A stretch of 64,000 nt of DNA from Cohnella sp. SGD-V74 (GTDB lineage Bacteria; Bacillota; Bacilli; Paenibacillales; Paenibacillaceae). Below, piece after piece: positions 26,072-57,195 of this stretch. A program made the translations under genes and the position numbers. The stretch spans positions 372,001-436,000 of the forward strand of contig NZ_PVYW01000002.1 of assembly GCF_003001675.1 (NCBI RefSeq). Reading direction: 5' to 3'. Numbering within the stretch: position 1 is the stretch's first letter; each line of letters opens with the position of its first letter. A model generated the notes under the pieces. The model had not been told where the DNA came from and did not search any database. It was given only the letters and a program-made list of their open reading frames with translations.

Positions 26072-27751
26072 TTATTGTTCATCCCTCTGCAATGCCGCGG
26101 ATACTTCCGCCAGCTCGTCCGCGGCCTGAAGCAGATGCCCGGACAGATCAGCCTGCCGAAGGGCTATACCGGACACGCGTACCACGCCGTCGCGCAAATC
26201 GGCGGAGGAATCGACCAGCCGGGCGACGGACACGACGATCTCGTCCAGTCCGGCGGCGACCTCGGCAGCCGCCCTGCTCCATTCCTCCGTCCCGACCGCC
26301 AGCGTCTGACTCTCTCCGGCAATGTCGAGGAACGAACCGACAGCCAATTCGGACTTATGCTTGGTCTCCTCCAATCGGACGGTAAATTGGGTGAAGCCGC
26401 CGGACATGCCTTCCATATCGCTTCTCATCGCGTCCATCAGCGTCCTCGTCTGCTTCGCGAAGCTCTCCGTCTGCCCCGCAAGCTTACGGATTTCCCGAGC
26501 AATGACCGAGAAACCGCCGCCTTGGGCTCCGGCTCTCGACGCTTCAATAGAAGCGTTCAGAGAGAGCAGATTCGTCCGGTAAGCGAGATCTCCGATACCC
26601 GACATGAACCGCAGGGCGTCGTCCATCCGCTCGGCGATCGAACCGACTTGGCCGCCCAGCCGAACCAGTTCCTCGCTCGTCCGCTCGAAGGAAGCGGCCA
26701 ATTCCAGCACCGCCTGTTTGCCCTCTTGAGCATAGCCGTTCGTTTTCTCTACGGAGTTTCTTAGCGTTCCCGCCGCTTCCCGCAGCTGCTCCGAACCCGC
26801 CGACGCCTGCTGCACGACCGCAGATATCGACGCGGTCGCCTCGTGCAGCGATTCGATCCGGACTTGGCAGCTTTCCGCCAGCCGTTGGATGGAGTCGGAA
26901 GCTTCCCGGTTATCTCGGGACTTCTCGAGAAGACTGCCTGTCCAGCTTACCACCTTGCGCCCCGTGTCCCGGTTGGCTTCCAGCATCTCGCGAATTCTCT
27001 CGCCCATCTGCGCCAGGATAAGATCGACGCGGCCGAACTCGTCGCTGCGAACGACGCTTGAGTTGTAGTCGAGACGGCCTTCCCGGTAGGCCTCGATGCG
27101 CCTGATGAGCATCCCCACGCCCCGGTTGACGGACCGCCCGAATAGATAAGCCAGCGCGACAGACAGAACGACGGTGCCTATCGTCAGCCAGATCGCGGTT
27201 CTTGAGCTGTTCGCCAGCGTATCGCCTAATTGTGTCGCGCGCTCCTCTCTCAGCCCGCCGAATATATCCTTCAGCTCCCGATCAATTCTTCCGGCAGCAG
27301 TCGTCTGATTCGTCAGCGACTGAAGGATCGCGGCCGAGTTCAGAGATTCGGGAAGAAACGTCCCGGTAAAATGGTCGGCGTAGAGCGCTTCGTAATCGGT
27401 GTTCAGCTTGGCGAACCAGTTCAGATAGGAGCCCAGCTCGGCGCTGCCCTCCAGTTCGGCGGACAGCTTGCCGGCCGTCGTCCGCAGGCTCTCGAGCTTG
27501 TCCGTATAAGCCTGGGCCTGCTTCTTCTCGTACCCTTCGCTCAGGAAGCGATAGGAGATCGTATTCAGTTCATGATACGTCATCATCAAGCTCTCATACT
27601 CCCGCTCCAACCGGCCGAGCGTCTCGCTCTCCTTGGCCTGCGAGCGGATTTGGCCGTTCGCGCGCAGAATCGCAGCCCCCGTCAGCGTGCTGATCAGCAA
27701 CAGCGCGAGCAAGAGCAACGTTAATTTGCGGATGATCGTCATATGCGCCAA
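26072..27751 (-). CDS. Methyl-accepting chemotaxis protein
   Basis: A transmembrane chemoreceptor: a first membrane segment ([19 protein letters not shown]), an extracytoplasmic region rich in Glu/Tyr, a second membrane helix near residues 175-195, a HAMP region ([19 protein letters not shown]), then the long signalling hairpin with the tip [38 protein letters not shown] place the start at the TTG at 27751 because GGGGGG lies 8 nt before it; the frame begins with a GTG at 27787 and an ATG follows at 27742. The promoter upstream has the same direct repeats as the sugar-binding protein gene, suggesting sugar taxis. Confidence 0.85.
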
Positions 27752-27803
27752 AGTGGCAGCCCCCCGTCCAATGACGTTCGTTCGCACCTAAGTGCCCGCC
27801 ATC

Positions 27804-27870
27804 ATTGTACTGCCGAAGGCGCTGCGCGCTCTGCTCTTTTTGTGACCCGTTCCGATAAAATCGTGACTAT
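27804..27870 (-). promoter_or_regulatory. Chemoreceptor promoter with GTCAC direct repeats
   Basis: On the minus strand, two GTCAC repeats (complements of 27842-27846 and 27863-27867) are exactly 21 bp apart. The -10 element TACAAT (27804-27809) lies 32 nt past the near repeat. There is no good -35, which fits a promoter that needs an activator. The geometry matches two other promoters in this window. Confidence 0.75.
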
Positions 27871-27898: not shown

Positions 27899-29515
27899 TC
27901 ACAATCCCGCTCTGCGAAAAGACTTCCGGTAATCGTGGGGAGTGACGCCGTGAACTTTGCGGAACAATCTGGCGAAATACGAGAAGTTGCCGTAATGGAG
28001 CCGGTCCGCGATTTCGCTGACGCTGTCGTCCGTTGCGGCGAGCAGTTCGGCCGCTTTGCGCATTTTTTCCCGCAGGATGAAATCGGTCAGCACGGTGCCC
28101 GTCTCCTTGCGGAACAGCCGGGACAAGTACGCCGGATTGACGAAAGCGACCGAAGCGAGCTGCTCGCGCGTCAAATCCTCCTCAAGATGGTCGGCGATAT
28201 ACGCCTTGACCTTCTGGATGACGGGGCTTTCGGCCTGCAAATGGGAGAACAGCTTGCCCGCGGCCCCGGCGATGCAACCGGCCCATTCCTTGAACCGGGC
28301 TACCGACCGGGTCGCCTCGTCCGCTCCCGGACAGTCGGCGATCTCGTACAGCTGCTTGGCCTGGAGCCCTTTGCGGTGCATCGCGTAGTAGATGACCTGA
28401 AGCAAAGAATGGTAAGACGAGATCAGCGTATCGACCGTCGCCGTGCCGGCGTCCAGACGCCCCAGCCATTCGTCCAGCCCAAGCGCGAATTCGCGGGTTA
28501 AGCCCTGCTCAAGCAGATCCGCCCAATCCAGCATCGGCTCGGTCAGGCTAGGCACGACTCCCGGCTGTGCCGCGTCTTCGGGGGCAGCGCCCCGAATGAC
28601 GGCATTGGCGACGCCGACGTTGCGGTATTCCCGGTCCAGCAGGCTCAAATAGCCGTTCAGGACATCAGCCAGCGCGGTCGTCTCTCCGACATAACAGGAT
28701 ACCCGGCAGAAGAAATACCGCCTGCAAGCCTCCAAATATTCGCGGCAGCGAGCTTCGAGCTCCTCCACCGAAACCTCCTGCTCCCCCTCGTACAGCACGA
28801 CGAGAATGTTGCCCCGGTGATCCTCAATCACGTTGCCCGCCACCCCCGGCAGCAGCACCTCCTCCGCGGCCTTGCGCAAGGCGAACTCCATAATCAGCTC
28901 GTCCCGCTCGTTCAGCGGTTTGTCCCAGCCTTCGACGCTGATCAGAATGAGCCTGACCACGCTCAACTCGTTCAAATTCATGCCGTAAGCGGATAGAGCC
29001 CGCTCGACCGATACGGGAGAAGGAGAAATTCTGCGTTCGAGCACATCCTGCCAGAAGCGCTCGATCAGAAGCGGCTTGCGGCTGTTCCACAGCTCGACGA
29101 TTTTGCCGTACTGCTCGTCGGCTTCGTTCAGCCTTCTTCGCTCGTTCACCTTCCCGATCGCCGCCAGCAGCGCCTGCTCCAGCTCCGAGTAGACGACCGG
29201 CTTCAGCAAGTATTGCAGGCTGCCGAGGCGGACCGCCTCCTTCGCGTACGCGAATTCGGAATGGCACGTCAGCACGATCGTCTCCGGATGCAGCCCCTCG
29301 TTCTTGACCCACTCCATCAGCTCGAGCCCGTTCATCTCCGGCATCTCGATATCGCAGACGACGATGTCGATCTCCCGTTCGCGAAGAAGCTGCTGCGCCA
29401 TCGGCGCATGGTACGCCTCATGCACCTCGTCGACGCCGATCTCGTCCCATCTGACGCCGGAGATCAGCCCCTTGACCGCGTAAATCTCGTCGTCCACGAT
29501 CAGCACCCGTATCAT
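27899..29515 (-). CDS. YesN-type response regulator (REC + AraC)
   Basis: 538 residues. The receiver domain (1-120) has the acidic pair DD8-9 and the phosphoacceptor D55 (IVVCDIEMPEMNG), and the C-terminus has an AraC DNA-binding pair (LTREQLASVAFVNPAYLSRLFRKE; VSEIADRLHYGNFSYFARLFRKVHG). The ~280-residue middle is typical of YesN. It overlaps the kinase gene by 4 bp. As the third gene of the binding protein-kinase-regulator operon, it is the best candidate to bind the GTCAC repeats at 27.84, 32.95 and 57.17 kb. Confidence 0.92.
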   Translation of the reverse strand: MIRVLIVDDEIYAVKGLISGVRWDEIGVDEVHEAYHAPMAQQLLREREIDIVVCDIEMPEMNGLELMEWVKNEGLHPETIVLTCHSEFAYAKEAVRLGSLQYLLKPVVYSELEQALLAAIGKVNERRRLNEADEQYGKIVELWNSRKPLLIERFWQDVLERRISPSPVSVERALSAYGMNLNELSVVRLILISVEGWDKPLNERDELIMEFALRKAAEEVLLPGVAGNVIEDHRGNILVVLYEGEQEVSVEELEARCREYLEACRRYFFCRVSCYVGETTALADVLNGYLSLLDREYRNVGVANAVIRGAAPEDAAQPGVVPSLTEPMLDWADLLEQGLTREFALGLDEWLGRLDAGTATVDTLISSYHSLLQVIYYAMHRKGLQAKQLYEIADCPGADEATRSVARFKEWAGCIAGAAGKLFSHLQAESPVIQKVKAYIADHLEEDLTREQLASVAFVNPAYLSRLFRKETGTVLTDFILREKMRKAAELLAATDDSVSEIADRLHYGNFSYFARLFRKVHGVTPHDYRKSFRRAGL

Positions 29516-31287
29516 CTTTTATCCCCCCTTGGAGTCTCCTGGTCCTTGCCCTTGTCCAGTCCGATCGGCAGCCGCAGCGTAACGAGCGCCCCTTGGGGCT
29601 CTGCGGACGAGAACGTCATTTTCACCGGCCCCTTAAAATACAGCCTGCATCGGCGAACGACGTTCCACAATCCCAGACTGCGATCCCCCGGCTCGGCTTC
29701 GTGCACTCTCTCCTGCAATTGCTCCGCCTGTTCGTCCGACAAGCCTTTGCCGTTGTCCTCGACCTCGATCAGCAGCGTTCGGTCGCTGCCTTCGCCTTCC
29801 TGCGACACCTTCACGCGGATGCGGAACGGGCTGCCCGTGCGGATCGAGAAGCCGTGCACCATCGCATTCTCGACAAGAGGCTGGATGATCAGCGGCGGAA
29901 TCTCCGCGTCCTCCGTCCCGGGAGCCACGTCGAATTCGAACTCCAGCGTCTCGGGGAAGCGGTATTTCTGAATCGAGAGGTAATGGTAGATATGCTCGGT
30001 CTCTTCCTTGATCGTAATCGTCGATACCTGCGTACGCGTCGTGTATCTGAAATAGCGGACGAGGTGCAGCGCCATGTTCTGTATGACCTCGTAGTCGCGG
30101 ATTTGCGCGAGCTGGTAGACGATGTTGAGAGAGTTCATGAAGAAATGGGGATGAATCTGCGCCTGCAAATGCTTAAGCTCCGCCTTCTGCGTCCGGATCT
30201 GCTCCTCGTAAATGTCGATCTTGAGGTGCTCGATCTGCTGGGCCATCCCGTTAAACGTCTCCTTAAGCGCAAGGAATTCCTGAAGCTTGTAATCTTCCAT
30301 CCGCACGCTGAGGTCCCCTGAGCGGATTTTGCGCATGCCCTTGATGAACTGATGGATCGGCTTGACGATCGAATTTTGCAGGAACAGCAAGTACAGGCCG
30401 AGCATGGCGGCGGCGAGCATCGGGATCAGATAGGTCAGATTGCGGAAAAAGGGCAGCCCCTCCAGCAGAGACCGTTCCGGAAGCATGAGCAGCAGATCCA
30501 TGGCGGCCATCCTCGAGCTTTTCGCCACGAACAAATACGGCTTATCCAGCTTGACGATATTGTAGGCGGCTTTCCCGTCGTCCAGATAGGCCGACAGGTC
30601 CGTCGATCCGAGCGCTTCCCGGACGGCGGCTCCCGTTGCGGACAGGGGTACGCCTTCCCGCGACACGAGCAGCGCTTCGCCCTTGCCATCCTGGCCGAGC
30701 CTTCTCATCGGCTCCATCAGCCGGTTCAGGTCGACCCATGCGCCGATGTAGGAATCGTAGTGCGTATCGACGATGCGGGCCAGCGCGTACTCTCCGTTCT
30801 GCTCCACGAGGCTCCAGCGTCTGCCGCTTCCGTCTGCCGAGCTTGTCAAGATTTCGCGCAGTTTCTCCTGGATGAGCTGCTTCCTCTCGTAAGTCACGGA
30901 TTGCTGCTGGGCGACGAGCAGCTCGTCATGCTTCGCCCCGTAGGCGAACAGGATGTCCGCGGCATCGTAGTAATTAATATTGAGGTTCAAATCGTTCGCC
31001 GTCTGGGTCGTCGCCAAATAATATTCCCAGCTCTCTTTGCCGTACTGGCTCAGCGAGATCAAGCTCTGATCCTGCTCGGCGGTCTTGTACAGGTAGTTCT
31101 CAATTTCTCCGAGCACCTGATCCATGTCGTTCATATACATCGTCAGCATGTTCCGGTTCGACTGCGCCACCTGGGAGTGCACGACCTTGGTCGCGTACAG
31201 GTTGTTCCACAGCAGCGCGATGACGAGGGGAACGGTGACAAGAGCGAAGCCGAGAATCAGTCTGGAGCGCATCGTCGCGGGTCTCAT
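29512..31287 (-). CDS. YesM-type sensor histidine kinase
   Basis: 591 residues: two membrane helices (about 10-30 and 285-305) enclosing an extracytoplasmic sensor, HAMP (IVKPIHQFIKGMRKIRSGDL), then a LytTR-like/YesM histidine kinase core with phospho-His in AQIHPHFFMNSLN and ATP-binding box N/G (IQPLVENAMVHG; EVEDNGKGLS). It autophosphorylates and passes phosphate to the adjacent YesN. Encoded 12 bp after the substrate-binding protein gene, it probably reads the ligand state of that protein. Confidence 0.92.
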   Translation of the reverse strand: MRPATMRSRLILGFALVTVPLVIALLWNNLYATKVVHSQVAQSNRNMLTMYMNDMDQVLGEIENYLYKTAEQDQSLISLSQYGKESWEYYLATTQTANDLNLNINYYDAADILFAYGAKHDELLVAQQQSVTYERKQLIQEKLREILTSSADGSGRRWSLVEQNGEYALARIVDTHYDSYIGAWVDLNRLMEPMRRLGQDGKGEALLVSREGVPLSATGAAVREALGSTDLSAYLDDGKAAYNIVKLDKPYLFVAKSSRMAAMDLLLMLPERSLLEGLPFFRNLTYLIPMLAAAMLGLYLLFLQNSIVKPIHQFIKGMRKIRSGDLSVRMEDYKLQEFLALKETFNGMAQQIEHLKIDIYEEQIRTQKAELKHLQAQIHPHFFMNSLNIVYQLAQIRDYEVIQNMALHLVRYFRYTTRTQVSTITIKEETEHIYHYLSIQKYRFPETLEFEFDVAPGTEDAEIPPLIIQPLVENAMVHGFSIRTGSPFRIRVKVSQEGEGSDRTLLIEVEDNGKGLSDEQAEQLQERVHEAEPGDRSLGLWNVVRRCRLYFKGPVKMTFSSAEPQGALVTLRLPIGLDKGKDQETPRGDKR

Positions 31288-31298
31288 GTTCGTCCTCC

Positions 31299-32879
31299 TC
31301 AGCCGTTCGTCTGCCGTCCGGCGGCCAGCCAGCGGTCGAGCTGCCGCTGCTTTTCCGCCACGACCTTGTCCGCTCCGGCGATCTTCAGCCTCTCCAGATA
31401 CATCGGAATGATTTTCTCGGGGTCCTGCGCCCCGGTGTTGAGAGCGGGCATGAACTCCTTGTCCACGAGAGAGCAGGCCGCGATCTCGGCTTTGACCCGT
31501 TCGGGGTTAAAAACGAAGCCGAGCGCCCTCGATTGGTCCGCGGACTCGTTGAACCTGCGGTACTCCTCCCACAAGCGCGGATTCTCGTTCTGCCACAAGT
31601 AGGAGTTGAGCTGGTTGCCGAACATCCACGGCTGGTTCAGGTTGTAGCCTACCGTTTTGGAATCGACCCCTTGCGGGTACTGGATGACGTTGTCGGCCAG
31701 CTTGACGTAGTGCACGCCTTCGATGCCCCAATCGAGCAGATTGAGCAAATAAGGGTCGGTGTAGAGCAGGTTCAGCAGCATCATCGCTTTCTCCGGATGC
31801 TTGGCGCCCCGGGTAATCGCGAACATGGCGCTCGTCGTATCGGCCGTCGTCGTATACGGCCTGGTCAGCTCCACGCTGACCATCGGATATCCCGTATCGC
31901 GCGAGGCGTGCAGCTCGAAGCCGGGCTTCAGCGATTCCGCGTAGGAGAACGCTTTGCCCGCCTTGACGGCGTCGAACTCGTTATCCTTGGACGTCGTCGC
32001 ATCCGCATTGAAATATCCGGCGCGGTTCCATTCGTACATCAGCTTCGCATATTCCATGAACTCGTCCGTCTCGGCCAGATTCACGACTTTGCCTGCGGCG
32101 CTGTCCCGATGAAGCACGCCCGGCCCTTCTCCGAGCATGTCGAACATGCCGTACTGCATCAGGAACGTCAGCGGACTCCGATCGGCCCGGGCTTGGAGCG
32201 GCGCCATGCCGGGCTCGCTCTCCTTGACGGCTGCGAACACCGGGCCCAAATCCGCCAGCTCGCGGACCGCCGACAAGTCGATCTTCAGCTTGTCGACGAT
32301 GTCCTTGCGCAGCACGAGCCCTTTGCTGGAGGCGAACTCCTTGTTCGTGACGATGCCGTAGATGCTTCCCTCGACTTTGCCCGCCTCCAGAATCGACGGG
32401 TCGAGAATATCCTTGATCCCTTTGCCGTACTGCTCCAGCAGGTCGTCGAGCGGGATGAACTTGCCCTTGGCGATCTCGTCCGCGAACCTCATCCAGCCCG
32501 CGGTGAACATCAGGTCGATCTGCTCTCCCGATGCGAACATCAGCCCGGTCTTATCCCACCACGAGCCCATATCTATCGTCTGGATATCCAGCGTCGCATT
32601 GATTTTCTTCATTAAATAGTCGCTCATGGCCCGTTCGACGAGTTCCAAGTCCTTAGGCACGTTGCCTGCGGGGAACACCATGACGAGCTTATCGGTATCG
32701 GCCGAGGCTCCCGCCGTTTTCTTGCCGTCGGCGCTGCCGGACGACTCCGGCGTGCGCTGGTCCGGCACTTGCCGATCCGGCCCTCCGCTCCGCTCATACG
32801 CCCATATTCCGATAAACAGTGCCGCCGTCAGCAGGGCGACAACAGATGCAAACGCTTTCCATTTGATGGGTCGGTTCAT
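31299..32879 (-). CDS. Extracellular sugar-binding protein, sensor-linked and without lipobox
   Basis: 526 residues from the ATG at 32879, which follows GGAGG by 9 nt; an ATG at 32888 overlaps that site. The N-terminus is a single hydrophobic anchor (FASVVALLTAALFIGIW) with no lipobox Cys. The rest is a family-1/LplA-like solute-binding protein (LDIQTIDMGSWWDKTGLMF; ELTRPYTTTADTTSAMFAITRGAKHPEKAM). No ABC permease gene is adjacent; instead the kinase and regulator follow directly. It therefore may present ligand to YesM. Ligand unknown, probably an oligosaccharide. Confidence 0.85.
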   Translation of the reverse strand: MNRPIKWKAFASVVALLTAALFIGIWAYERSGGPDRQVPDQRTPESSGSADGKKTAGASADTDKLVMVFPAGNVPKDLELVERAMSDYLMKKINATLDIQTIDMGSWWDKTGLMFASGEQIDLMFTAGWMRFADEIAKGKFIPLDDLLEQYGKGIKDILDPSILEAGKVEGSIYGIVTNKEFASSKGLVLRKDIVDKLKIDLSAVRELADLGPVFAAVKESEPGMAPLQARADRSPLTFLMQYGMFDMLGEGPGVLHRDSAAGKVVNLAETDEFMEYAKLMYEWNRAGYFNADATTSKDNEFDAVKAGKAFSYAESLKPGFELHASRDTGYPMVSVELTRPYTTTADTTSAMFAITRGAKHPEKAMMLLNLLYTDPYLLNLLDWGIEGVHYVKLADNVIQYPQGVDSKTVGYNLNQPWMFGNQLNSYLWQNENPRLWEEYRRFNESADQSRALGFVFNPERVKAEIAACSLVDKEFMPALNTGAQDPEKIIPMYLERLKIAGADKVVAEKQRQLDRWLAAGRQTNG

Positions 32880-32914
32880 GTGCAGCATCCTCCGGGAGCG
32901 ACGTTTGATTTCTC

Positions 32915-32980
32915 ATCTTACACCAGACCAAGGGGCGGCGGCTACACCGTTTGTGACCTGGAATGCCAATTTTGTGACCT
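32915..32980 (-). promoter_or_regulatory. Binding-protein promoter with GTCAC direct repeats
   Basis: Minus-strand CAGGTCACAAA occurs twice, with GTCAC at complements of 32953-32957 and 32974-32978, 21 bp apart. The -10 is TAAGAT (32915-32920), 32 nt from the near repeat. The -35 is poor. This is the best-conserved of three sites with the same layout in this window. Confidence 0.8.
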
Positions 32981-33808: not shown

Positions 33809-33905
33809 GCGCATTTTCCTCATCCGATCATCGTTTTTATCTATCCCTTGCCCCTATGAACGTCAGTATACTATATGTGAATCGAACAGAACAGGAGATG
33901 ATCGA

Positions 33906-35828: not shown

Positions 35829-35912
35829 ATGACGTCCCGTTCGGGATTGGCCGCTTGCGAGCGACGTCCATGTCGGTTTTCCGCTGTATTTTGTTCTTCG
35901 TTCATGTGGACG

Positions 35913-35944
35913 GGGAGGAATACGTGACCCACGTATTTCCTCCC
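35913..35944. terminator. Hairpin between convergent glycosidase genes
   Basis: GGGAGGAATACGT pairs with ACGTATTTCCTCCC with one bulged T and a CACC-like loop. It is strong but lacks a T-tract on either strand; its position between two convergent stop codons favours a terminator role. Confidence 0.55.
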
Positions 35945-36007
35945 TCCAAATTGCCGCCGGAGACGCCGGTTGCAAGGACTTATGAGACAGCTCTTCTCGC
36001 TTCTCTA

Positions 36008-37102: not shown

Positions 37103-37130
37103 ATCTGAATTCCTCCCGGGGTACTTGTCA

Positions 37131-38836: not shown

Positions 38837-38871
38837 TGGATGTCACCCGCTTTCCGGTACTGGGCAGAGAA

Positions 38872-38902
38872 GGCCCAACCGCGAACGGCCGGCGGCTGGA
38901 CC
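38872..38902 (-). other. Intercistronic hairpin between binding protein and permease genes
   Basis: GGTCCAGCCGC pairs with GCGGTTGGGCC on the minus strand. No U-run follows. Such hairpins after binding-protein genes typically stabilise the upstream transcript so that the binding protein is made in excess. Confidence 0.5.
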
Positions 38903-38926
38903 CTCTCATGTGCTTGAATGTCGCGT

Positions 38927-40306: not shown

Positions 40307-40332
40307 ATGGTGTAATCCCCCTTTTAGTGGTT

Positions 40333-40499: not shown

Positions 40500-40608
40500 T
40501 CGCTCTTAAGATATCTTCCCTCTTAAGATAACGCTTCCAGAGCGATTTTCGGATGGTTGGGTTTTGCCTTTTCTTTGCTCCGTTTGACCGATTCGACAGG
40601 TTCCGTAA

Positions 40609-42162: not shown

Positions 42163-42163
42163 G

Positions 42164-46843: not shown

Positions 46844-49800
46844 TTAATTCATGAAATCGACGGCCTGCAGCAACCGTCTCAGAGCGACTATCGCTTCCGC
46901 TCGGGTAGCTGAGTCTCCGGGAGCGAATGTATTCGAAGATCTCCCTTGCATGATTCCTTCGCGAACAAGCTCGTCTGCGGCAGAGCGCGCCCAGTTCGGG
47001 ATCGGCTCGCGATCCCCGTCGAAGCTCTTGACGCTCCCCGAATCGGATGACGATACGCCCGGCGCTGCCGTCTTGGCCAGCCTCATCGCCTGGGCAAGCA
47101 TGACCGCCATCTCCGCGCGAGTCACTTCCTTGTCCGGCGCGAAGCTTCCGTTAGTATGGCCGTTAACGATGCCGTAGCTCGCCGCCGCATTCACGTAAGA
47201 CGCGTACCATGCAGACGGAGCGACATCCGCGAAGCGATTGCCGGCGCCGGAATCGGGCTGCAGGCCAAGCGCCCGGACGATCAGGGTCGCCATCTCCGCC
47301 CGGCTGACATTGCGGTTCGGCGCGAACTTATTGGCGGCCGTACCGTTGACGAGCCGCTTGTTCGCCATCCGCTCAATGTCCGTACGGGCCCAATGCCGGG
47401 CAATATCCTCGAACGTCTCGTCCGTTATGGCTACCGCATAGATGCTGTTCGTCGCGCTCTTCACCGTCGCAAGCGTGCGACCGTCAGCCGCGGAGAACAT
47501 GGCCGGAACGGTGCGGAACACTCCATTAACCGGATCGAAGACGACGACGGAATAATGATCGATGTCGGACGCGCCTTCTACTGTGAACGTTCTCGTCAAG
47601 AAACGTTGACCGAACCGATGAATCGGGATCGATTGTCCGCCCGCTTCGAGCGTCATATCGAAGATAACCAGCATTCCCGCGATGCGGAAGCCGCTTGTCT
47701 CCGCCTTGATCTTCAAATCGGCCTCCTCCTGATCGGAGGTATACGAGAGCTTGATCTTCAGCTTGGCATCCGCCTCTTTGGCCAACGGATATCCGGCTGC
47801 CCCCAGCACGTCGAGAATGTCCGTCGGCAGCGAGTAGCTTAAGTCTCCGAACTTCAAGACGATGACGGCGTTCGGCAGCGATGCCGCGGCCGCTCGCAGC
47901 GCTTCGGAGGTGAATTCTGCTTCTCCTCCCGACTCGCCGGCAAGATCGATCACGATCTCCTGTCTGCCCTCGGCCACCGCCTGTTTCAACGGCGCATCTT
48001 GATTGGCTGCGGTTTGATCCGCAGTGCCGCCTGCACCGGAGGCGGAGCCGCTGCCGCCAGAGCCGCCGGAACCGTTGCCTCCCGGTTGCTTCGTTAACGT
48101 CCTCAGCTCGAATTCCGCTCCCATCGCGTTAAAGACGGAACCTAGCTTCGGATTGCGAATGAGGACGTTGTCCAGCTCCACGGAGCCGGTAACGCTGCTG
48201 TTGACATGTATGCCCCAAGTGCCGGCTCCGTCGATCACGTAGTTCTGAATGCGGACACGGCGCGGCGAATCGGCGATCGGATGCGGGCCGTTGATGTACA
48301 GCCCCTGGTAAGTGCTGTCTGCCGCGACATTGTCCCGGATGAGGATGTCCGCGTCGATCGGCTTGTCGCCGGTGAAAATCCAGATCGCGCCGAAGTCCTG
48401 ACCCCAGTTGGGTTCGCGCCCTCCGGTACGAATGAGCGTATTCCGCTCTACGATCGTCGTTCCGTCGAACGCGACCGGATTAAACCGGGTGGAGATGGCG
48501 ATTCCCGCGCCGAACCCGACCGTATCGGAGATCACGTTGTCCTGCACCTTGTTATCCCGTCCGCCGAAAATGGCGACATTATCGGCAAGCCAAGGAAGTT
48601 GAATCGTGTTGAAGCGAATCGTGTTGTTGCTCGTGCGGTAATCGTCGTCCGGCGCTTCGGGAGGCGCGTCGTCCGGTCTCTGCGACCACAGCGCGATGCT
48701 GTCGTCTCCCGAGTTGCGAATGTGCGTCTGCTCGATCATCGTGCTGCGGGTTCCGGACGTCAGGTTGATGCCGTCCGCATACGTATTGCGAATACGTACG
48801 CCGCCGATATACAAGCCGTCGGTCGCCACGCCTTCGTCGCTGCGCATCGACCAGATGCCGGCTTTGGCATGCTCGATCCATACGTTCTGAATGACCGAGC
48901 CGGCGCCGAACGTGCCGTCGAATCCGGCTTCCCGCTCCTCGTCGCGCCGGGACGTCACGTCCACGTCCAGCAGCAAGTCGTACACGCGAATGTTGCTGCC
49001 TTCGGCCATAAAGCCTGCGCCCTGCAGCGTCGTATGCCACATGCCCGCGCCGCGGATCGTGACATTGTCGACGTACAGCGGGCCTTGTCGCAGTTGGAAC
49101 GTCCCTGCGGGAATCCACAAACCCTTGTCCTGCGCCTTCGCCGCGGCAATCGCGTCACGGAAAGCATTCCAGTCGTCGCCCGCATCGTCCGCGACCGCGC
49201 CGAAATCCATTACGCTCAAGTATCCGTCCGGCTTCGCATACGCCTCAGGCGCTTGCTCCAGCTCCACCAGGTCGACGATCACATACTCCGCCTGATCATC
49301 TGCATCCTTCTGCAAACGAACTGTCGCTCCCTCGGGAATCGGGTCGGTCAGCATCCGTGATTCGTCGTAAAACCGGTGAGCGTCTCCGTCCGCCGGGTCG
49401 TTCGTCCACGGATACGCGCCGTACACCCAGCTATGCTCGCTCGACAGCGCGAGCTTGCCGCGCTTGACGCCGTTCACGTACAGCGTCAGCGTCTCCTCGA
49501 TTCCGCCCCCCTCCTGAGCGTCGGGGATGATGTAACGAACAACGAGAGAGTTGGCATCTTTAACTGCCGTAAACTCCACGTACTGACCCTCCGCATCCAG
49601 ACGAACAGCCTGCCTTCCGGATGCTTCCGAGGCGAACGTCTTGTACGTGCGGTCCGGCTCCAGCAAAGCGCCGTTCGTTCGGCCATGCTCCGCCTCGTAC
49701 GTCGTGAAGGGCAGCGTAGCGCCGCGATAATCCGGTTTGCTCGTTCCCCGCACCGCAATCGCATCGATGTCCACGCCCGAAGACGCCGGGGCCGCTTCAT

Positions 49801-52800
49801 CGGATTGCAAAGTCACCGTATTCATACCGGCACGAAGAGACAGTGTGACGACAGTCTCGGACCAACTTCCACCCAAAGCCGGGAGGGCCAACCCGCCGTT
49901 TTGCTCCAGTCCGTTAACGGATAATCCAAGCGTCTTCCCGCTTCCGGAGCTGTTGCGATAGCGAACAACGGTCTCGTAATCTCCGGCTTCACCCGCATAC
50001 ACCGAAAACAGCAATGCTGCATTTTCGCTGCCGAATCCCGTTGCATAGCTGCCTCCTGACACAACGCCGCCGGTCATGAACGCCTGCTCCGCTTCATACC
50101 GCGCGTCTCCCGCCACCAACTCCAGCCGCCAATGCGCCTCGACTGCGGACGGATTCGCTGCCTGCGACACCGCTTCTCCAACTGGGGAGCGCACCAGGTA
50201 TTCGCCAGAAGCAGCCGCAGCGTTGCGAAGCACCCGATACCCCGCATAGTCGTCGATCTTCCATTGGGATGCCAGCCCGGCTCCGTCGAAGACGGCCGCG
50301 GCCTTCCCGTCGCCGCCGATGGCGAGCATCCGGCCGCTCGCTGGATTGACGAGTCGCTTGTGTCCGTTATAGTCGTACGGCAGCCAGCGGGAGGCCGCTT
50401 CGTTCGTCTCGGAAGGCGTCTCCAGCGCGACGGCTCCTCCCCGCGCAACCAGTACCTTGCCGGAAACCGCGTCTACGATCCTGACTTCGTTCGTCTCCGC
50501 GAGCTCCGGCGTTACCCCGTTCGCGGGGCCGTTGTCCCAAGGAACGTTAATCGCTTCGGCCGGAGCTTCCTCGAACAGCCACTGAACGCCTCGGCTCTCC
50601 ACCGACCTTAACTCGAATTGCGCGTAGCCCTGAGCATCTTCCGTATGCATGTAGCCGTCTTCGTATCCGCTGGCTTCGCTGCGAAGGAGATAAACTCCGG
50701 ATTCCGGCCCCCTCTCGATCGCCCAGCGAGCTTTCCCGCCCGGCGGCACGCTCTCCGTCTCCAGATAGCTCCGTCCGCCCGCGATGGAAATCGCGTTGCC
50801 GGTCGCCCGATTTTCGATCCGCACCGCTCCGTCCGCCTCGATCAGCTTCCAATGCGATGCGGCGTTATTTTCCGCCGGAGTTCCATACAGTACAGCCCGA
50901 TTGCCATTCTCGAACAAATACTGGCCGGAAGCCCTGTTTTTGATCCGAATATAACCGTCAGGAAGCTCAACAGGCGCAGCAGGCGCCGGCTCGACGATCC
51001 ATTGCGCGCTGCCCCAATCCTGCGGAATGTCGCTCGCCTGCGCATACCCCGTGCCGTCCTCGACGTGAATGACCGCCGTCCCGCTCCACTGGTTGCTGAA
51101 CGTTTTGACGGAAGAGCCGGGGTCGCCGACCTCGTAGACGGCCCACTGCACGCTGCCCCACGTCGGATCAAGCTCCAAGCTCTCCAGCGGAGTCAGATGC
51201 CATTCCGGAACGCTTCGGGCGATCCGTTCGTTGGAAATGAAGCGCCCCGTCGCGCGATTGACGATGCGAACACCCTCCGAGCCTTGCTGAAACGACCAAT
51301 GTGAGCTTGCATCGGAAGCGTCCGGCTGTCCGTATGCGACCTTGCCATCGCTGTCCTCGTACAAGTACGTTCCGCGGTAGCTGTTTTTCAGCCGGACATA
51401 CTCCGAAGCCGTCTCCGTCACCGGATGGAACTCCCATTTCGGGCTGCCCCAATCTTTGGGCACGACGCCGTACTGCGCATGCTTGAGCTTGTTCTCGACG
51501 TTGACGTAGCTGCCGGAAGCCTCTCCCGCACGGCTGATCAACTTGTAGCCCTGGTACGTCTCGATCGTCCAGTCCCCGGCCGTCGAGCCCGGCGCCGGCT
51601 CAACCGCTTTGAGCGCATCCCGCGCGCCGCTCACGCCTTCCAAGCTGACGTAATGGCCGGTCGCCCGGTTTTTGATCCGCTGCACGCCGCCCGCTTCCTC
51701 GATCTGCCAATGCGCCCGCTGATCCGCGGCGTCAGCGTTGCCGTATTTCACGGTCCCGTTGTCCTCGTACAAATAAAGCTGCAGCCAGTTGTTCTTGATC
51801 CGGATATACGGATTAACCGGCCCCGTCGGCGGAGCCGGGTCCTCCAGCTTCCACTGCGCGCTGCCCCAGGTCGCTTGCGCCCAGTTGTTGCCCTGTGCGT
51901 AGCCGTCCTGGTTTTGCACGTTGATGAAGCTGCCCGCATTCGCCAGACTGCGCAGCGTGACGAAGCCGTCAACCTCGCCGCCTCCGTCGTTTCTCGCCTG
52001 CTCCATGAGCCAGACCGAATCCGGGCCGGCCCCGGCGTTAACCGCCAGCGGCGTTGCGCCTGCATGATCGATCGTCGTCGCATATCCGCCGGAGCCGACA
52101 TTCCGTAAGCGCTTACCGTCAACGCCGTCTTCGACGATCCACTGAGAGCTTGCATCGTCATAATTCGGCTCGCCGTATTTGACCTGTCCGTTATCCTCGT
52201 ACAGATAAGCGCCCGTCCATTGGCTGCGGAGGCGCTTCGGGGCTGAATCGGACGCCGCCTCCAGCTTCCAGACGGCGCTGCCCCACGACTTCTGCGCCCA
52301 ATTGTTCACGCGAACGATGCCGTCCGGCCCGCCGCCCGTTCCTTGGATGTTGACGATCCAGCCCGCATCCCGCGAGCTGACGATGTTGACCGATCCGTTG
52401 CCGGCATCCTCCAGCGTCCACAGATCGGACGTCCAGCCGCTTCCGATGTCGGAGATGCCGATCGGATGCGTAATCGTCTCCGCCGTCACATCCTGCGAAT
52501 GCAAGTAGTGTCCGGTCGCCCGATTGCGCAGCCGTTTGTAGCCGTCTTTGTCCTCGAGGAACCAGTGAGAAGTGGTGTCGTTAAGGGACGGGCGACCGTA
52601 TTTGACCTCGCCGTCCTGCTCGTACAAATACGAGCCGTCCCACGGATTCGCGATTCTGACCGGCGCCGTTGCCTCCGCGGGTTCGAACGACCAGACGGCG
52701 CTGCCCCACGATTTTTGCGCCCAGTTGTTCGCCTGCACGAAGCCGTCCTGGATTTGAAAATTGACGATCCAGGCCGAGTTGCGCGAGCTCACGATATTGT

Positions 52801-53194
52801 AGCCGCCCGGATTGTCCGGAGCGGCGGCAATTTCCCACGTGTCCGACGTCCAGCCCGCCGGAATGTCCGAGCTTTCCAGCGCGTTCGTGATGTTCGGCTC
52901 GGTGACGCTCTGCGAATGCAGGTAATGCCCGGTCGCCCGGTTACGCAGCCGCTTGTAGCCGTCCTTGTCCTCGATCTTCCATTGAGAGGCCGGATCGTTC
53001 ACCTGCGTGAAGCCGTATTTGACTTTTCCGTCCGACGCCTCGTACAGGTAATAGCCTTGCCACGTATTTTTGATTCTGACGTACTCCGCGGCCTCCGACG
53101 CGCCCCCGGAACCGCCTTCCGCGCGGGCGGAAAGCGGCGGGATCGCCAGAAGCAGCGCCAGAACCGCGATCATCAACCTTTGCAGCCCTTTCAT
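46844..53194 (-). CDS. Multimodular S-layer-anchored GH87-type alpha-1,3-glucanase
   Basis: 2116 residues. Signal peptide (LQRLMIAVLALLLAIPPLSARA); seven ~135-residue beta-trefoil-like repeats (about 35-1025; hallmark WxGxYLYE...HW..E...RATGHY); a CBM35-like module (~1030-1155); a second such module (~1160-1320); a right-handed beta-helix (~1323-1690, GYLSVMDFGAVADD) and, after a Gly/Ser linker, three SLH domains (~1920-2116) that bind the cell wall. In the helix, D1474 and the DD pair 1497-1498 have the same spacing I recall for the catalytic triad of GH87 alpha-1,3-glucanases (mutanases/mycodextranases). AAGGAGG precedes the ATG. It may attack fungal alpha-glucan or bacterial mutan. Confidence 0.85.
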   Translation of the reverse strand: MKGLQRLMIAVLALLLAIPPLSARAEGGSGGASEAAEYVRIKNTWQGYYLYEASDGKVKYGFTQVNDPASQWKIEDKDGYKRLRNRATGHYLHSQSVTEPNITNALESSDIPAGWTSDTWEIAAAPDNPGGYNIVSSRNSAWIVNFQIQDGFVQANNWAQKSWGSAVWSFEPAEATAPVRIANPWDGSYLYEQDGEVKYGRPSLNDTTSHWFLEDKDGYKRLRNRATGHYLHSQDVTAETITHPIGISDIGSGWTSDLWTLEDAGNGSVNIVSSRDAGWIVNIQGTGGGPDGIVRVNNWAQKSWGSAVWKLEAASDSAPKRLRSQWTGAYLYEDNGQVKYGEPNYDDASSQWIVEDGVDGKRLRNVGSGGYATTIDHAGATPLAVNAGAGPDSVWLMEQARNDGGGEVDGFVTLRSLANAGSFINVQNQDGYAQGNNWAQATWGSAQWKLEDPAPPTGPVNPYIRIKNNWLQLYLYEDNGTVKYGNADAADQRAHWQIEEAGGVQRIKNRATGHYVSLEGVSGARDALKAVEPAPGSTAGDWTIETYQGYKLISRAGEASGSYVNVENKLKHAQYGVVPKDWGSPKWEFHPVTETASEYVRLKNSYRGTYLYEDSDGKVAYGQPDASDASSHWSFQQGSEGVRIVNRATGRFISNERIARSVPEWHLTPLESLELDPTWGSVQWAVYEVGDPGSSVKTFSNQWSGTAVIHVEDGTGYAQASDIPQDWGSAQWIVEPAPAAPVELPDGYIRIKNRASGQYLFENGNRAVLYGTPAENNAASHWKLIEADGAVRIENRATGNAISIAGGRSYLETESVPPGGKARWAIERGPESGVYLLRSEASGYEDGYMHTEDAQGYAQFELRSVESRGVQWLFEEAPAEAINVPWDNGPANGVTPELAETNEVRIVDAVSGKVLVARGGAVALETPSETNEAASRWLPYDYNGHKRLVNPASGRMLAIGGDGKAAAVFDGAGLASQWKIDDYAGYRVLRNAAAASGEYLVRSPVGEAVSQAANPSAVEAHWRLELVAGDARYEAEQAFMTGGVVSGGSYATGFGSENAALLFSVYAGEAGDYETVVRYRNSSGSGKTLGLSVNGLEQNGGLALPALGGSWSETVVTLSLRAGMNTVTLQSDEAAPASSGVDIDAIAVRGTSKPDYRGATLPFTTYEAEHGRTNGALLEPDRTYKTFASEASGRQAVRLDAEGQYVEFTAVKDANSLVVRYIIPDAQEGGGIEETLTLYVNGVKRGKLALSSEHSWVYGAYPWTNDPADGDAHRFYDESRMLTDPIPEGATVRLQKDADDQAEYVIVDLVELEQAPEAYAKPDGYLSVMDFGAVADDAGDDWNAFRDAIAAAKAQDKGLWIPAGTFQLRQGPLYVDNVTIRGAGMWHTTLQGAGFMAEGSNIRVYDLLLDVDVTSRRDEEREAGFDGTFGAGSVIQNVWIEHAKAGIWSMRSDEGVATDGLYIGGVRIRNTYADGINLTSGTRSTMIEQTHIRNSGDDSIALWSQRPDDAPPEAPDDDYRTSNNTIRFNTIQLPWLADNVAIFGGRDNKVQDNVISDTVGFGAGIAISTRFNPVAFDGTTIVERNTLIRTGGREPNWGQDFGAIWIFTGDKPIDADILIRDNVAADSTYQGLYINGPHPIADSPRRVRIQNYVIDGAGTWGIHVNSSVTGSVELDNVLIRNPKLGSVFNAMGAEFELRTLTKQPGGNGSGGSGGSGSASGAGGTADQTAANQDAPLKQAVAEGRQEIVIDLAGESGGEAEFTSEALRAAAASLPNAVIVLKFGDLSYSLPTDILDVLGAAGYPLAKEADAKLKIKLSYTSDQEEADLKIKAETSGFRIAGMLVIFDMTLEAGGQSIPIHRFGQRFLTRTFTVEGASDIDHYSVVVFDPVNGVFRTVPAMFSAADGRTLATVKSATNSIYAVAITDETFEDIARHWARTDIERMANKRLVNGTAANKFAPNRNVSRAEMATLIVRALGLQPDSGAGNRFADVAPSAWYASYVNAAASYGIVNGHTNGSFAPDKEVTRAEMAVMLAQAMRLAKTAAPGVSSSDSGSVKSFDGDREPIPNWARSAADELVREGIMQGRSSNTFAPGDSATRAEAIVALRRLLQAVDFMN

Positions 53195-53451: not shown

Positions 53452-54294
53452 TCAGCCCTTCGTCGCGCCGTCGGCGAGGCCGGAAATCAAATACCGCTGA
53501 AGCAGCAGGAACACCGTCGCGATCGGCAGCGCGATCAGAATCGTGCCCGCGGCAAAAATCGTAAAGTTGTTCGCGAACTTGTCGTTGATGAAGTTGTACA
53601 AGCCCAGCGCCAAGGTGAACTTCTCCGGGCTGCGGATAATGATGCGCGGCGTCAGGAAGTCGAAGAACGGCGCCATGAACGTGAACAGCGCCACGACCGC
53701 GACGATCGGCTTCGCCAGCGGAATCAGGATCCGGAAGAAAATCGTCATATACCCCGCTCCGTCCATCTTGGCCGACTCGTCCAGATCGCGCGGGATCGTG
53801 TCCAGATACCCTTTTACGAGGAAAACGTTCATCGGCAAGCCCCCGAACACATAGATCAGGATCAGTCCGGTAAACGTGTCCAGCAGATTGACCGTGTTCA
53901 GCAGCAAATAGATCGCCACCATGCCCATCAGCACCGGAAACATCTGCAGCAGCAGGAACGTGTAGATGCTGTTTTTCCGCCCGACGAACCGGAACCTGGA
54001 GAACGCATACGCCAGAATAGTGACAAGGCAGACGGAGGCGATGCCGTTGGCGAACGCAACGATCAGCGTGTTTTTGTACCAGAGCGCATAGTCGCTTCTC
54101 GGGTTCGTGAACAGCCAGCGGTAGTGCTCCAGCGACCAGTTGTCGGGAATGAGCTTCAGCGCGAACAGGCTCGTGCCCGGATTCAGGGACATGCTGAACG
54201 CCCAGACGAGCGGATACAAAATGACGGCGAACATGATCAGGACAATAACGTAAATGCCCGACACTTCGAGAGCGGATCTCATGGAAGCTTTCAT
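53452..54294 (-). CDS. Maltose-type ABC transporter permease (MalG-like)
   Basis: 280 residues, six membrane helices, and the EAA loop with DESAKMDGAGYMTIFFRILIPLA near residue 175. It begins one base after the MalF-like stop and is the third gene of malE-malF-malG-like. It imports maltodextrin-like oligosaccharides, perhaps products of the neighbouring GH87 enzyme. A shared MsmX-type ATPase would be needed, as none is encoded here. Confidence 0.93.
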   Translation of the reverse strand: MKASMRSALEVSGIYVIVLIMFAVILYPLVWAFSMSLNPGTSLFALKLIPDNWSLEHYRWLFTNPRSDYALWYKNTLIVAFANGIASVCLVTILAYAFSRFRFVGRKNSIYTFLLLQMFPVLMGMVAIYLLLNTVNLLDTFTGLILIYVFGGLPMNVFLVKGYLDTIPRDLDESAKMDGAGYMTIFFRILIPLAKPIVAVVALFTFMAPFFDFLTPRIIIRSPEKFTLALGLYNFINDKFANNFTIFAAGTILIALPIATVFLLLQRYLISGLADGATKG

Positions 54295-54295
54295 T

Positions 54296-55600
54296 TTAAT
54301 ACATGTCCTCCTCTCGGAAAGACCGGGTTCTGCGGAATTGATAGAAGGCGAACGCCGCGACGACGATGCCCATGATGATCGAGATGGCCGCCGCCATCTT
54401 GTAGTTGTTCTCGTTAAACGTCAGGCTGTACACCCAGGAAATGAGAATGTCCGTAGCTCCCGAGTTCTGGCCCGATACCGGCGGACCGCCCTTGTTGAAC
54501 AAGTAGATCAGGTTAAAATTGTTGAAGTTCTGCGAGTACTGCATGATCAGCAGCGGAGCGGTGGCGTACAGCACGTGCGGCATCGTAATGTAGCGGAATT
54601 TCTTCCAGCGGCTGCCTCCGTCCACGTCCGCGGCCTCGTACCAGTCCTTCGAGATGCTCTGCAGCACCCCGGTAATGAGCGTGAACACATACGGAAAGCC
54701 GAGCCACACCTGAATGCCGATAATCGCGATCCTCGCCCACAGCGGGTCGGACAGCCACGGAATCATAACGCCGAAATGGGAGAAAATGTCCCGGTTGATC
54801 GCCCCGAAATTGTCGTTGAACATCGCCGCGAACACGAGCACCGTCATGAACGAAGGGACCGCCCAGGGCAGGATGAACACGGTTCGGATCAGCTTCTTGA
54901 ACCTCACCCGGCTGTCGTTGATCATCACCGCGAGGAAAAAGGCCAGCGTAATCTGCAGCGTCGTGGCGACCAGCGTCCAGACGACGGTCCAGGCGAGCAC
55001 GGACAGCAGGCTCTTGCTCCATACCGCCTCGGTGAACAGCGCCTTGAAGTTGGCGAAACCGACCCAGTCGAGCAGGTGCGCAGGCGGCGAATTGTACAGG
55101 TTGTAGTTCGTAAACGCGAGCGAGATCATGAACAGCAGCGGAAAAATGACGATCAGCGCCATCATGATGAAGTTCGGAATGACGACGAAATACGGGAAGC
55201 CGTGCTCCCAGCTGTCGTGAAAAGCTTGCCGGACGGAGGGCGTGCGAACGCCCGCCTGCCGCTTCTTCGCGTCCCGGTAAGCGTCGTTCAGGTTCAGCGC
55301 GTACAGCCCCAGCAAAATGACCGTCAGGATGACGGAGAGAATGCCCTGTACGAGCAGCGTGCGCGAATCGTCCAGCTCCGGGTCGTCGCCGAGGCCGATC
55401 AATCCGACGATGCCGTTAAAGAGCGGAACCGACAGCGTATAGATCAGGCTCAAGCCGAAGACAAGCAGCAGCACGCCCTTGATCCAACGCCGGTTGTACA
55501 GCTGTCCCAATCCGGGAACGACGGACAGCAGCGCAGCCCATGCGGGATTGTGCCCGCTGTACGAGTGGCGCTGTTCGCCGATCGCGTTCTTGATGTCCAT
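54296..55600 (-). CDS. Maltose-type ABC transporter permease (MalF-like)
   Basis: 434 residues from the ATG at 55600 (GGAAGGTG lies about 8 nt before it). The N-terminal ~100 residues (PGLGQLYNRRWIKGVLLLVFG) precede the six-helix core, as in the long MalF of Gram-positives; the EAA loop is EAADVDGGSRWKKFRYITMP near residue 313. It follows malE-like after an intercistronic terminator-like hairpin. Confidence 0.93.
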   Translation of the reverse strand: MDIKNAIGEQRHSYSGHNPAWAALLSVVPGLGQLYNRRWIKGVLLLVFGLSLIYTLSVPLFNGIVGLIGLGDDPELDDSRTLLVQGILSVILTVILLGLYALNLNDAYRDAKKRQAGVRTPSVRQAFHDSWEHGFPYFVVIPNFIMMALIVIFPLLFMISLAFTNYNLYNSPPAHLLDWVGFANFKALFTEAVWSKSLLSVLAWTVVWTLVATTLQITLAFFLAVMINDSRVRFKKLIRTVFILPWAVPSFMTVLVFAAMFNDNFGAINRDIFSHFGVMIPWLSDPLWARIAIIGIQVWLGFPYVFTLITGVLQSISKDWYEAADVDGGSRWKKFRYITMPHVLYATAPLLIMQYSQNFNNFNLIYLFNKGGPPVSGQNSGATDILISWVYSLTFNENNYKMAAAISIIMGIVVAAFAFYQFRRTRSFREEDMY

Positions 55601-55676
55601 GTTTGCTTCACCTTCCATAGTCCGCAAACCGGCCGCCATCGTCTCTGCGCCCCGCCGAACGGGCATCGCGATGGCA

Positions 55677-57129: not shown

Positions 57130-57195
57130 ATTGTACGGCCGGGGCGACGTCCTCAACTACCAATCCGGTGACCTGAAAGGCTAAGATTGTGACTT
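57130..57195 (-). promoter_or_regulatory. malE-like promoter with GTCAC direct repeats
   Basis: On the minus strand, GTCAC repeats lie at complements of 57168-57172 and 57189-57193, 21 bp apart. The -10 TACAAT is at 57130-57135, 32 nt past the near repeat. There is no good -35. This matches the promoters at 27.8 and 32.9 kb base for base in geometry. Confidence 0.8.

What the first reader, a model, noticed from the sequence alone, without database searches (positions are those of the whole stretch)
32915..32980. A new conserved promoter architecture: two GTCAC direct repeats at fixed spacing from the -10
Seen: upstream of the orphan binding-protein gene, CAGGTCACAAA occurs twice, 21 bp apart, and the near GTCAC is exactly 32 nt from TAAGAT. 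The same two numbers (21 bp between repeats; 32 nt to the -10) hold at 27.84 kb before the chemoreceptor and 57.17 kb before malE-like, always in the direction of the gene, and never with a good -35. Established: AraC-type activators often bind two direct half-sites about two helix turns apart, just upstream of the -35. Inference: the YesN at 27.9-29.5 kb, in the operon with the first site, is the activator of all three.
Basis: partly seen in the sequence, partly recalled or inferred. Interest (0 to 1): 0.82.

Follow-up and report, generated by a model that had tools for sequence, protein, structure and literature searches.

The report
Conserved switch for an α-glucan regulon
Three promoters in this soil bacterium carry the same two-part landing site, most likely for one sensor-controlled activator that switches on sensing of, probable swimming toward, and digestion and uptake of a fungal-type sugar polymer; the promoter layout itself is the classic one known from the E. 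coli arabinose operon.

Summary
All three promoters carry GTCAC-N16-GTCAC with the -10 starting 37 nt after the second GTCAC (32-nt gap). A model trained only on orthologous binding-protein promoters finds just these three in the 8.24 Mb genome at E<=2.1e-5; the next hit has E=0.53. In the 15 genomes (own included) with an orthologous SBP-kinase-YesN trio, 27 of 27 hits outside the training class lie before malEFG(-GH87), a second GH87-like gene, or the chemoreceptor. A GGTAG box also belongs to the operator. Of the window's AraC-type regulators only the trio's YesN is conserved at the locus; its recognition-helix signature is absent from 19 of 19 examined paralogues without such a site. The activator inference is well supported, though binding is untested. 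The "new architecture" claim fails: E. coli araBAD has identical 21/37 geometry. Missed: malEFG sits beside a surface-anchored GH87 alpha-1,3-glucanase-like enzyme, so this looks like an alpha-1,3-glucan regulon run by a three-component system of the CuaDSR kind. A paralogous trio in the same genome has similar half-sites 22 bp apart, so spacing may help keep paralogues apart.

The parts
32953..32978 (-). Operator A: half-sites GTCAC at 32978-32974 (distal) and 32957-32953 (proximal), 21-bp period
   Evidence: R1 52.5 bits over 32980-32910 (this site is in R1's training set); PWM made without window sites 42.9 bits
32915..32920 (-). -10 TAAGAT of the SBP-HK-RR operon, 37 nt from the proximal GTCAC
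   Evidence: TAnnAT invariant in the 14-sequence alignment A1
31299..32888 (-). Solute-binding protein (SBP_bac_1 + DUF3502), no permease gene beside it; proposed extracellular sensor subunit. Likely true start is the second ATG, 32879 (inference from the GGAGG position)
   Evidence: relatives of 59-76% identity in 16 other genomes
29512..31287 (-). Histidine kinase (HAMP, His_kinase, HATPase_c), YesM type
27899..29515 (-). Response regulator, YesN type (Response_reg + HTH_18/HTH_AraC): proposed activator; NPAYLSRLF and NFSYF in the two recognition helices (helix assignment recalled)
27842..27867 (-). Operator B: GTCAC at 27867-27863 and 27846-27842
   Evidence: R1 27.5 bits, E=2.0e-5 in the whole genome, not in training
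27804..27809 (-). -10 TACAAT before the chemoreceptor
26072..27787 (-). Methyl-accepting chemotaxis protein; the GTG at 27787 is too near the -10, so the true start is probably the ATG at 27742 (inference)
   Evidence: MCPsignal
57168..57193 (-). Operator C: GTCAC at 57193-57189 and 57172-57168, followed by GGTAG
   Evidence: R1 27.4 bits, E=2.1e-5, not in training
57130..57135 (-). -10 TACAAT before malE-like gene
55727..57055 (-). MalE-like solute-binding protein (SBP_bac_8)
   Evidence: best solved relative 2zyk, E=2.3e-99
54296..55666 (-). MalF-like permease
53452..54294 (-). MalG-like permease
46844..53194 (-). GH87-type alpha-1,3-glucanase-like enzyme, 2116 aa, CatAgl_D1/D2 + ricin-B + CBM35-like + 3 SLH stretches; no operator of its own found, presumed co-transcribed from site C (inference)
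   Evidence: PDB 7c7d E=1.5e-82; three catalytic Asp kept; no R1 hit before it

Best explanation
The repeats are one operator: two direct half-sites bound by two subunits of the YesN-type response regulator at 27899-29515, placed exactly as araI1-I2 is in E. coli araBAD, so that the bound activator replaces the missing -35 contact (class II activation). The extracellular binding protein (31299-32888) senses a saccharide and signals through the kinase (29512-31287) to the regulator, a three-component system that also activates itself (site A). Targets: the malE-malF-malG transporter operon, probably with the adjacent surface-anchored GH87 enzyme (site C), and a chemoreceptor (site B). The substrate is most likely alpha-1,3-glucan or its oligosaccharides. 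Shown by computation: operator, geometry, conservation, regulon membership, co-occurrence with this regulator. Inferred: binding, activation, phosphorylation dependence, ligand, co-transcription of GH87.
For: Whole own genome with R1, trained on 14 SBP promoters only: A 3.1e-13 (in training), B 2.0e-5, C 2.1e-5, next 0.53. Across 148 genomes (stricter filters), the 15 with an orthologous regulator give 41 hits at E<=0.05. By gene context all 41 lie before SBP (14, the training class), malE (15), a second CatAgl gene (9, one of them weak) or an MCP orthologue (3), so 27 of 27 hits outside the training class are coherent. malE operator in 14 of 14 other genomes. Close MCP orthologue in 3 of 15 genomes, and all 3 carry the site. 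The other AraC-type regulators of the window (33008-33823, 40609-42162) do not appear in the 19-20 kb stretches L096-L109 (E<=1e-20). Regulators with the 21-bp site form one clade (100/96); NFSYF in the second recognition helix in 15/15 of these, 13/13 of the 22-bp clade, 1/2 of the G123/G134 sister pair, 0/19 paralogues without a detected site. araBAD geometry identical. GH87 identity. Five further strong named examples: Paenibacillus catalpae, P. lupini and three genomes labelled P. glycanilyticus.
Against: No binding, expression or phosphorylation data. In G070 the SBP promoter has a degenerate pair (GTCAT/GTCAC) and no -10 at 36/37. Near-perfect operators occur in G067 and G146, where no orthologous regulator and no plausible target was found. 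Operator B lacks the GGTAG box (GCAGA). Weak -35 similarity is slightly commoner than in shuffled spacers (24 of 39 sites with 3 or 4 of 6 matches, against 40% in shuffles), so a residual -35 is not excluded at some sites. Substrate is read from enzyme homology only: the window enzyme is a divergent GH87 (CatAgl_D2 about 110 bits against 761 for the typical enzyme elsewhere in the genome), and GH87 also holds mycodextranases (PMC10696023). In G021 no GH87 lies at the locus. Regulator and site co-inheritance could in part reflect linkage, since SBP and malE sites sit in one cluster; the unlinked GH87-like sites (8 genomes with R1) speak against that. One of the 19 'no-site' regulators (L216, G007) sits in a system with a weak R3 hit (E=0.0015) in which no half-site pair was seen.
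Confidence: 0.82

Rival explanations
1. The operator belongs to another AraC-type regulator of the genome (for example the AraC at 33008-33823 or the YesN at 40609-42162), and the trio's own YesN acts elsewhere.
For: The genome gives 147 matches to an AraC-type HTH at E<=1e-12, with 150 of 292 candidates scored, and two other such regulators lie near site A.
Against: Neither appears in the stretches around the conserved locus in 14 other genomes. Every one of the 15 genomes with the orthologous regulator has sites. The recognition-helix signature fits.
Confidence: 0.08
2. A new kind of promoter architecture.
For: A -10 at 37 nt (33) or 36 nt (6) in 39 of 40 related promoters with the 21-bp pair.
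Against: E. coli araBAD: TAGC boxes 21 bp apart and TACTGT 37 nt after the second. The layout is the textbook AraC class II arrangement (recalled).
Confidence: 0.03
3. Same operator and regulator, but the ligand is another alpha-glucan or oligosaccharide (nigeran, starch-like or cyclodextrin-like), not alpha-1,3-glucan.
For: The window enzyme is a divergent GH87; the best solved relative of the MalE-like protein, 2zyk, is titled only 'Solute-binding protein' (that it binds cyclodextrin is recalled). Sister sites in G134 sit near GH14 and GH31 genes.
Against: All three GH87 catalytic Asp are kept; the best solved relatives are alpha-1,3-glucanases; a second CatAgl gene is the recurrent unlinked target.
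Confidence: 0.3

Closest known systems
E. coli araBAD promoter, AraC on araI1-I2 (class II AraC activation)
   Same: Two direct half-sites 21 bp apart; proximal box start to -10 start 37 nt (measured); activator site reaches the -35 region (site assignment recalled)
   Different: Different half-site sequence (GTCAC...GGTAG, not TAGC); regulator is a receiver-domain YesN beside a kinase gene, not a sugar-binding AraC
CuaDSR of Ruminiclostridium cellulolyticum (SBP-HK-RR three-component system)
   Same: Sensor SBP, kinase and AraC-type response regulator in one operon control an ABC sugar importer; CuaR induces a reporter from the region upstream of cuaA in E. coli (PMC5663094, PMC10384115; passages seen)
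   Different: cuaDSR is reported constitutive, here the trio carries its own operator; cellobiose and a phosphorylase instead of a GH87 enzyme; the terms 'binding site' and 'direct repeat' do not occur in PMC10384115; no chemoreceptor target in the passages seen
AraPST of Geobacillus stearothermophilus and the related xylo-oligosaccharide two-component system
   Same: Sugar-binding protein, kinase and regulator controlling an ABC transporter (recalled; only a mention of araPST and the reference list were seen in PMC4194401)
   Different: Arabinose or xylo-oligosaccharides; operators could not be compared (PMC1800775 not held)
XydS/R of Clostridium cellulolyticum
   Same: AraC-type response regulator controlling polysaccharide-degradation genes; its effector domain shifts target DNA (PMC3572039, passages seen)
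   Different: Several candidate repeats listed but no defined operator; xydRS reported as not autoregulated; no binding-protein partner in the passages seen
GH87 alpha-1,3-glucanases (Agl-KA, Agl-FH1, Agl-ST)
   Same: CatAgl_D1/D2 catalytic unit and the three catalytic Asp
   Different: 2116-aa SLH-anchored, ricin-B-rich protein; the listings showed no paper on control of GH87 genes by a two- or three-component system

Membership tests
AraC-type class II promoter (araI1-I2 geometry) | Regulator with AraC/XylS double-HTH domain | tested here: met
   HTH_18 1.7e-20, HTH_AraC 3.6e-13
AraC-type class II promoter (araI1-I2 geometry) | Two direct half-sites two helix turns (21 bp) apart | tested here: met
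   relatives
AraC-type class II promoter (araI1-I2 geometry) | Proximal half-site at the -35, fixed distance to the -10, poor -35 | tested here: met
   -10 at 37 in 33, 36 in 6, none in 1 of 40 sites; best -35 match at most 4 of 6 in the 39 sites with a -10; araBAD 37
AraC-type class II promoter (araI1-I2 geometry) | Regulator binds and activates | not testable with these tools
   needs gel shift, footprint and reporter
SBP-HK-RR three-component sugar-sensing systems | SBP, His_kinase and YesN genes contiguous in one operon | tested here: met
   31299-32888, 29512-31287, 27899-29515 with gaps of 11 and -4 nt; same order in the 14 orthologous loci, the regulator of G008 matching in two pieces
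SBP-HK-RR three-component sugar-sensing systems | Regulator controls an ABC sugar importer | tested here: inconclusive
   operator before malEFG in 15 of 15 genomes; control not measured
SBP-HK-RR three-component sugar-sensing systems | SBP contacts the kinase and modulates it | not testable with these tools
   needs interaction assay
GH87 | CatAgl_D1 + D2 catalytic unit | tested here: met
   160 and 110.6 bits against cut-off 27
GH87 | Three catalytic Asp (D1067/D1090/D1091 of Agl-KA) | tested here: met
   aligned ADG and GDD motifs, 23 residues apart
GH87 | Alpha-1,3-glucanase activity | not testable with these tools
   needs enzyme assay

The most novel reading that the evidence does not exclude
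Paralogous three-component systems in one genome share a similar half-site and similar recognition helices and are kept apart largely by half-site spacing: 21 bp for the GH87 trio, 22 bp for the permease-SBP-HK-RR system on contig C38, with the proximal half-site held 37 nt from the -10 in both. If so, one base pair of helix rotation, set by the dimer geometry of the two response regulators, is the specificity determinant.
Probability: 0.28. Interest if true: 0.68.

Novelty: new member of a known kind. Interest (0 to 1): 0.52.

Why it matters
AraC-type regulators are very numerous in this genome (147 HTH matches), and none of the passages I saw in four papers on such response regulators (PMC10384115, PMC5663094, PMC3572039, PMC11034029) gives a base-resolved operator confirmed by footprint. 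This finding gives a conserved, base-resolved predicted operator for one clade, a recognition-helix signature shared with the 22-bp clade but absent from 19 of 19 examined paralogues without a detected site, a predicted regulon that couples sensing, uptake, a surface alpha-1,3-glucanase-like enzyme and (in three genomes) chemotaxis, and a natural 21 versus 22 bp pair that makes specificity by spacing directly testable.

Tried and rejected
Considered and rejected: the full 11-mer CAGGTCACAAA as the motif (not enriched); a CRP-like inverted site (the GTCAC repeats are direct); the AraC at 33008 or the YesN at 40609 as regulator (not found around the conserved locus). SBP relatives L016-L030 (15 loci, 45-59% identity) have no pair with this geometry within 500 nt upstream of the match, but three of their systems have a site farther upstream, before permease genes: L016 and L017 (G134, G123) and L029 (G026, 22-bp class). 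A 106-residue HTH search in G067 and G146 to find the regulator of their lone operators gave no clear candidate (the motif pattern used there matched only some loci). R3 (22-bp model, four training sites) has a built-in preference for 22 bp, although it also found four 21-bp sites, so the 21/22 split rests on the regulator clades as well. In one search the 21-bp period was imposed when reading out the pairs (GTCAC mismatches at most 1 per pair in 38 of 40, 2 and 3 in the others); the -10 offset was free between 32 and 42. The extra 'other' class of 8 sites was left out of the count of 40, and two later second-GH87 sites (L173, L174; 21 bp with the -10 at 37 and 36) are not in it either. Literature: ten searches ran; two searches were rejected for word format and rephrased. 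No structure prediction was run: it would not have tested DNA binding.

Full report
Observation. The three sites are as described. On the minus strand GTCAC-N16-GTCAC occurs at 32978, 27867 and 57193 (start of the distal repeat), each with the -10 (TAAGAT, TACAAT, TACAAT) starting 37 nt after the start of the proximal GTCAC, i.e. a 32-nt gap. Exact GTCAC pairs at period 21 number 4 in the window against 0.07 expected; the fourth is inside a kinase gene and has no -10. The pair plus TAnnnT at +37 occurs 3 times against 0 in 200 simulations. The wider 11-mer is not enriched. A weight matrix made from 36 sites of other genomes, none from the window, ranks the three window sites first with 55.3, 42.9 and 31.0 bits; the fourth place in the window scores 1.9.

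What stands downstream. Site A precedes a solute-binding protein with DUF3502 (31299-32888), a HAMP/His_kinase protein (29512-31287) and a YesN-type response regulator (27899-29515), with gaps of 11 and -4 nt. Site B precedes a chemoreceptor (MCPsignal). Site C precedes MalE-, MalF- and MalG-like genes. Behind malG on the same strand lies a 2116-aa protein with the GH87 alpha-1,3-glucanase domains D1 and D2, ricin-B and CBM35-like modules and three SLH stretches. Its closest solved relatives are alpha-1,3-glucanases (7c7d, E=1.5e-82), and the three Asp reported as important for catalysis in Agl-KA and Agl-FH1 (passages of PMC6814745 and PMC10696023) are conserved.

Conservation. In a set of 148 genomes (own and 147 relatives), 16 others have an SBP relative of at least 59% identity; 14 of them have the orthologous trio (in G008 the regulator matches in two pieces). 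All 14 carry the repeat pair before the SBP gene; in G070 it is degenerate and has no -10 at 36/37. Fifteen further SBP relatives (L016-L030) have none within 500 nt upstream, though L016, L017 and L029 have a site farther upstream, before permease genes.

Regulon. A sequence-only model (R1) of 14 SBP promoters, the window's included, was searched through the 8.24 Mb genome: A 52.5 bits, B 27.5 bits (E=2.0e-5), C 27.4 bits (E=2.1e-5), next 13.4 bits (E=0.53). B and C were not in the training set. In the 148 genomes R1 gives 54 hits at E<=0.05 with the stricter filters. The 15 genomes with the orthologous regulator hold 41: 14 before SBP, 15 before malE, 9 before a second gene with CatAgl domains (8 unlinked, 1 linked and weak, in G089) and 3 before an MCP orthologue (assignment). 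Thus 27 of 27 hits outside the training class make sense. R2, trained on 40 sites, adds two more unlinked sites next to CatAgl_D2 genes in G021 and G005 (not inspected further). The other 13 R1 hits are in 11 genomes: G123 and G134 (sister regulators), G017, G041 and G071 (22-bp class, below), and G012, G014, G067, G095, G137 and G146, which are weak or unexplained. In named genomes, R1 (E<=0.01) finds the site within 350 nt before the SBP match in 17 of 79 loci: 17 of the 20 with SBP identity of 62% or more, 0 of the other 59.

The operator. Over 40 sites (15 SBP, 15 malE, 7 second GH87-like, 3 MCP) the -10 starts 37 nt after the proximal GTCAC in 33, 36 nt in 6 and is missing in 1 (the 21-bp period was imposed there). 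Column counts give GTCACaATcTT..C.TT..aGGTCACnA...TgGTAGt: besides both GTCAC boxes, the G's at 12 and 15 nt after the proximal repeat start are nearly invariant (40/40 and 39/40), in a GGTAG-like box that is worn in site B. This fits a double-HTH regulator reading two boxes in the proximal half-site (inference). The best -35 match is at most 4 of 6 in 39 sites (15 with 2, 20 with 3, 4 with 4); that is somewhat above shuffled spacers, 40% of which reach 3 or more.

Not a new architecture. In E. coli K-12 the TAGC boxes before araB, which I recall as parts of araI1 and araI2, are 21 bp apart and the second starts 37 nt before TACTGT. The geometry is that of araBAD to the base.

The regulator. 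Around the conserved locus only the trio's YesN is shared; the other two AraC-type proteins near site A have no match there at E<=1e-20. In a tree of 49 regulators the 15 with the 21-bp site form one clade (100/96) and the 13 with the 22-bp site another (100/100); NFSYF in the second recognition helix is in 15/15, 13/13, 1/2 (the G123/G134 pair) and 0/19 (paralogues without a detected site; one of these, L216, has a weak R3 hit nearby without a half-site pair). Ten own-genome HTH loci were returned out of 147 matches; a helix pattern was found in 5 of the 10, and only the trio's regulator and the C38 paralogue show NPAYLSRLF with NFSYF.

Spacing classes. The own genome's C38 system (permeases, SBP, kinase, regulator 38% identical to the window's) has the half-sites 22 bp apart and TATAAT 37 nt after the proximal one. 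A model of four such sites (R3) found 12 new 22-bp sites, 11 with the -10 at 37. By position 9 of the 12 lie upstream of an SBP and a regulator match, one upstream of an SBP near a contig end, and two elsewhere. The two classes also differ in some bases, and the 21-bp model R2 still sees the C38 site weakly (21.9 bits against 38-56 for A, B, C, which are in its training set), so spacing need not be the only discriminator.

Mechanism and confidence. Best reading: ligand-loaded SBP acts through the kinase on YesN, which binds the two direct half-sites and recruits RNA polymerase in place of a -35, activating its own operon, the importer with its surface glucanase, and a chemoreceptor. Operator and regulon are well shown by comparison; regulator identity is strongly supported; activation and ligand are inferred. 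The nearest described system is CuaDSR (PMC5663094 and PMC10384115, passages), where cuaDSR is reported constitutive and no chemoreceptor target was seen in what I read.

Noticed in passing
window 33008-46708: In the own genome about 13 kb (AraC, unknown 692-aa ORF, WbsX/GH99-like, ABC transporter, second YesMN pair, apiosidase-like protein) lies between GH87 and the SBP operon; sites A and C are 24 kb apart against 4.7-16.5 kb in 14 other genomes. GC drops to 0.53 at 36-44 kb, which may mark an insertion.
   Followed up: partly
L112:9979-10047(-) (G146) and L113:9963-10032(-) (G067): Near-perfect 21/37 operators (45.8 and 49.9 bits with R2) in genomes without a detected orthologous regulator, beside a transposase fragment and spore-germination genes (G146) or TIR and AAA genes near spore-germination genes (G067); no plausible target.
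   Followed up: partly
L170:8790-8866(-) and L188-L195, L197, L198, L203, L204: A second operator class with a similar half-site at 22-bp period, most of it before SBP-HK-RR systems.
   Followed up: partly
L110, L133, L175 (G134): Sister-clade sites (21 bp, -10 at 36): L110 lies behind a GH14 beta-amylase gene, L133 before an AraC regulator and GH31 alpha-glucosidase, L175 some 3 kb before a GH87-like match; again an alpha-glucan theme.
   Followed up: no
L107 (G008): malF, GH87 and the regulator each match in two or more separate pieces at the conserved locus, suggesting decay or assembly errors.
   Followed up: no
window 24973-25830(-): Gene P0006 without a Pfam match, downstream of the chemoreceptor, conserved in L096 (46%) and L116 (47%); in L116 no chemoreceptor match lies before it.
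   Followed up: no
whole genome G000: 147 AraC-type HTH matches at E<=1e-12 in one 8.24 Mb genome, with only 150 of 292 candidates scored.
   Followed up: no
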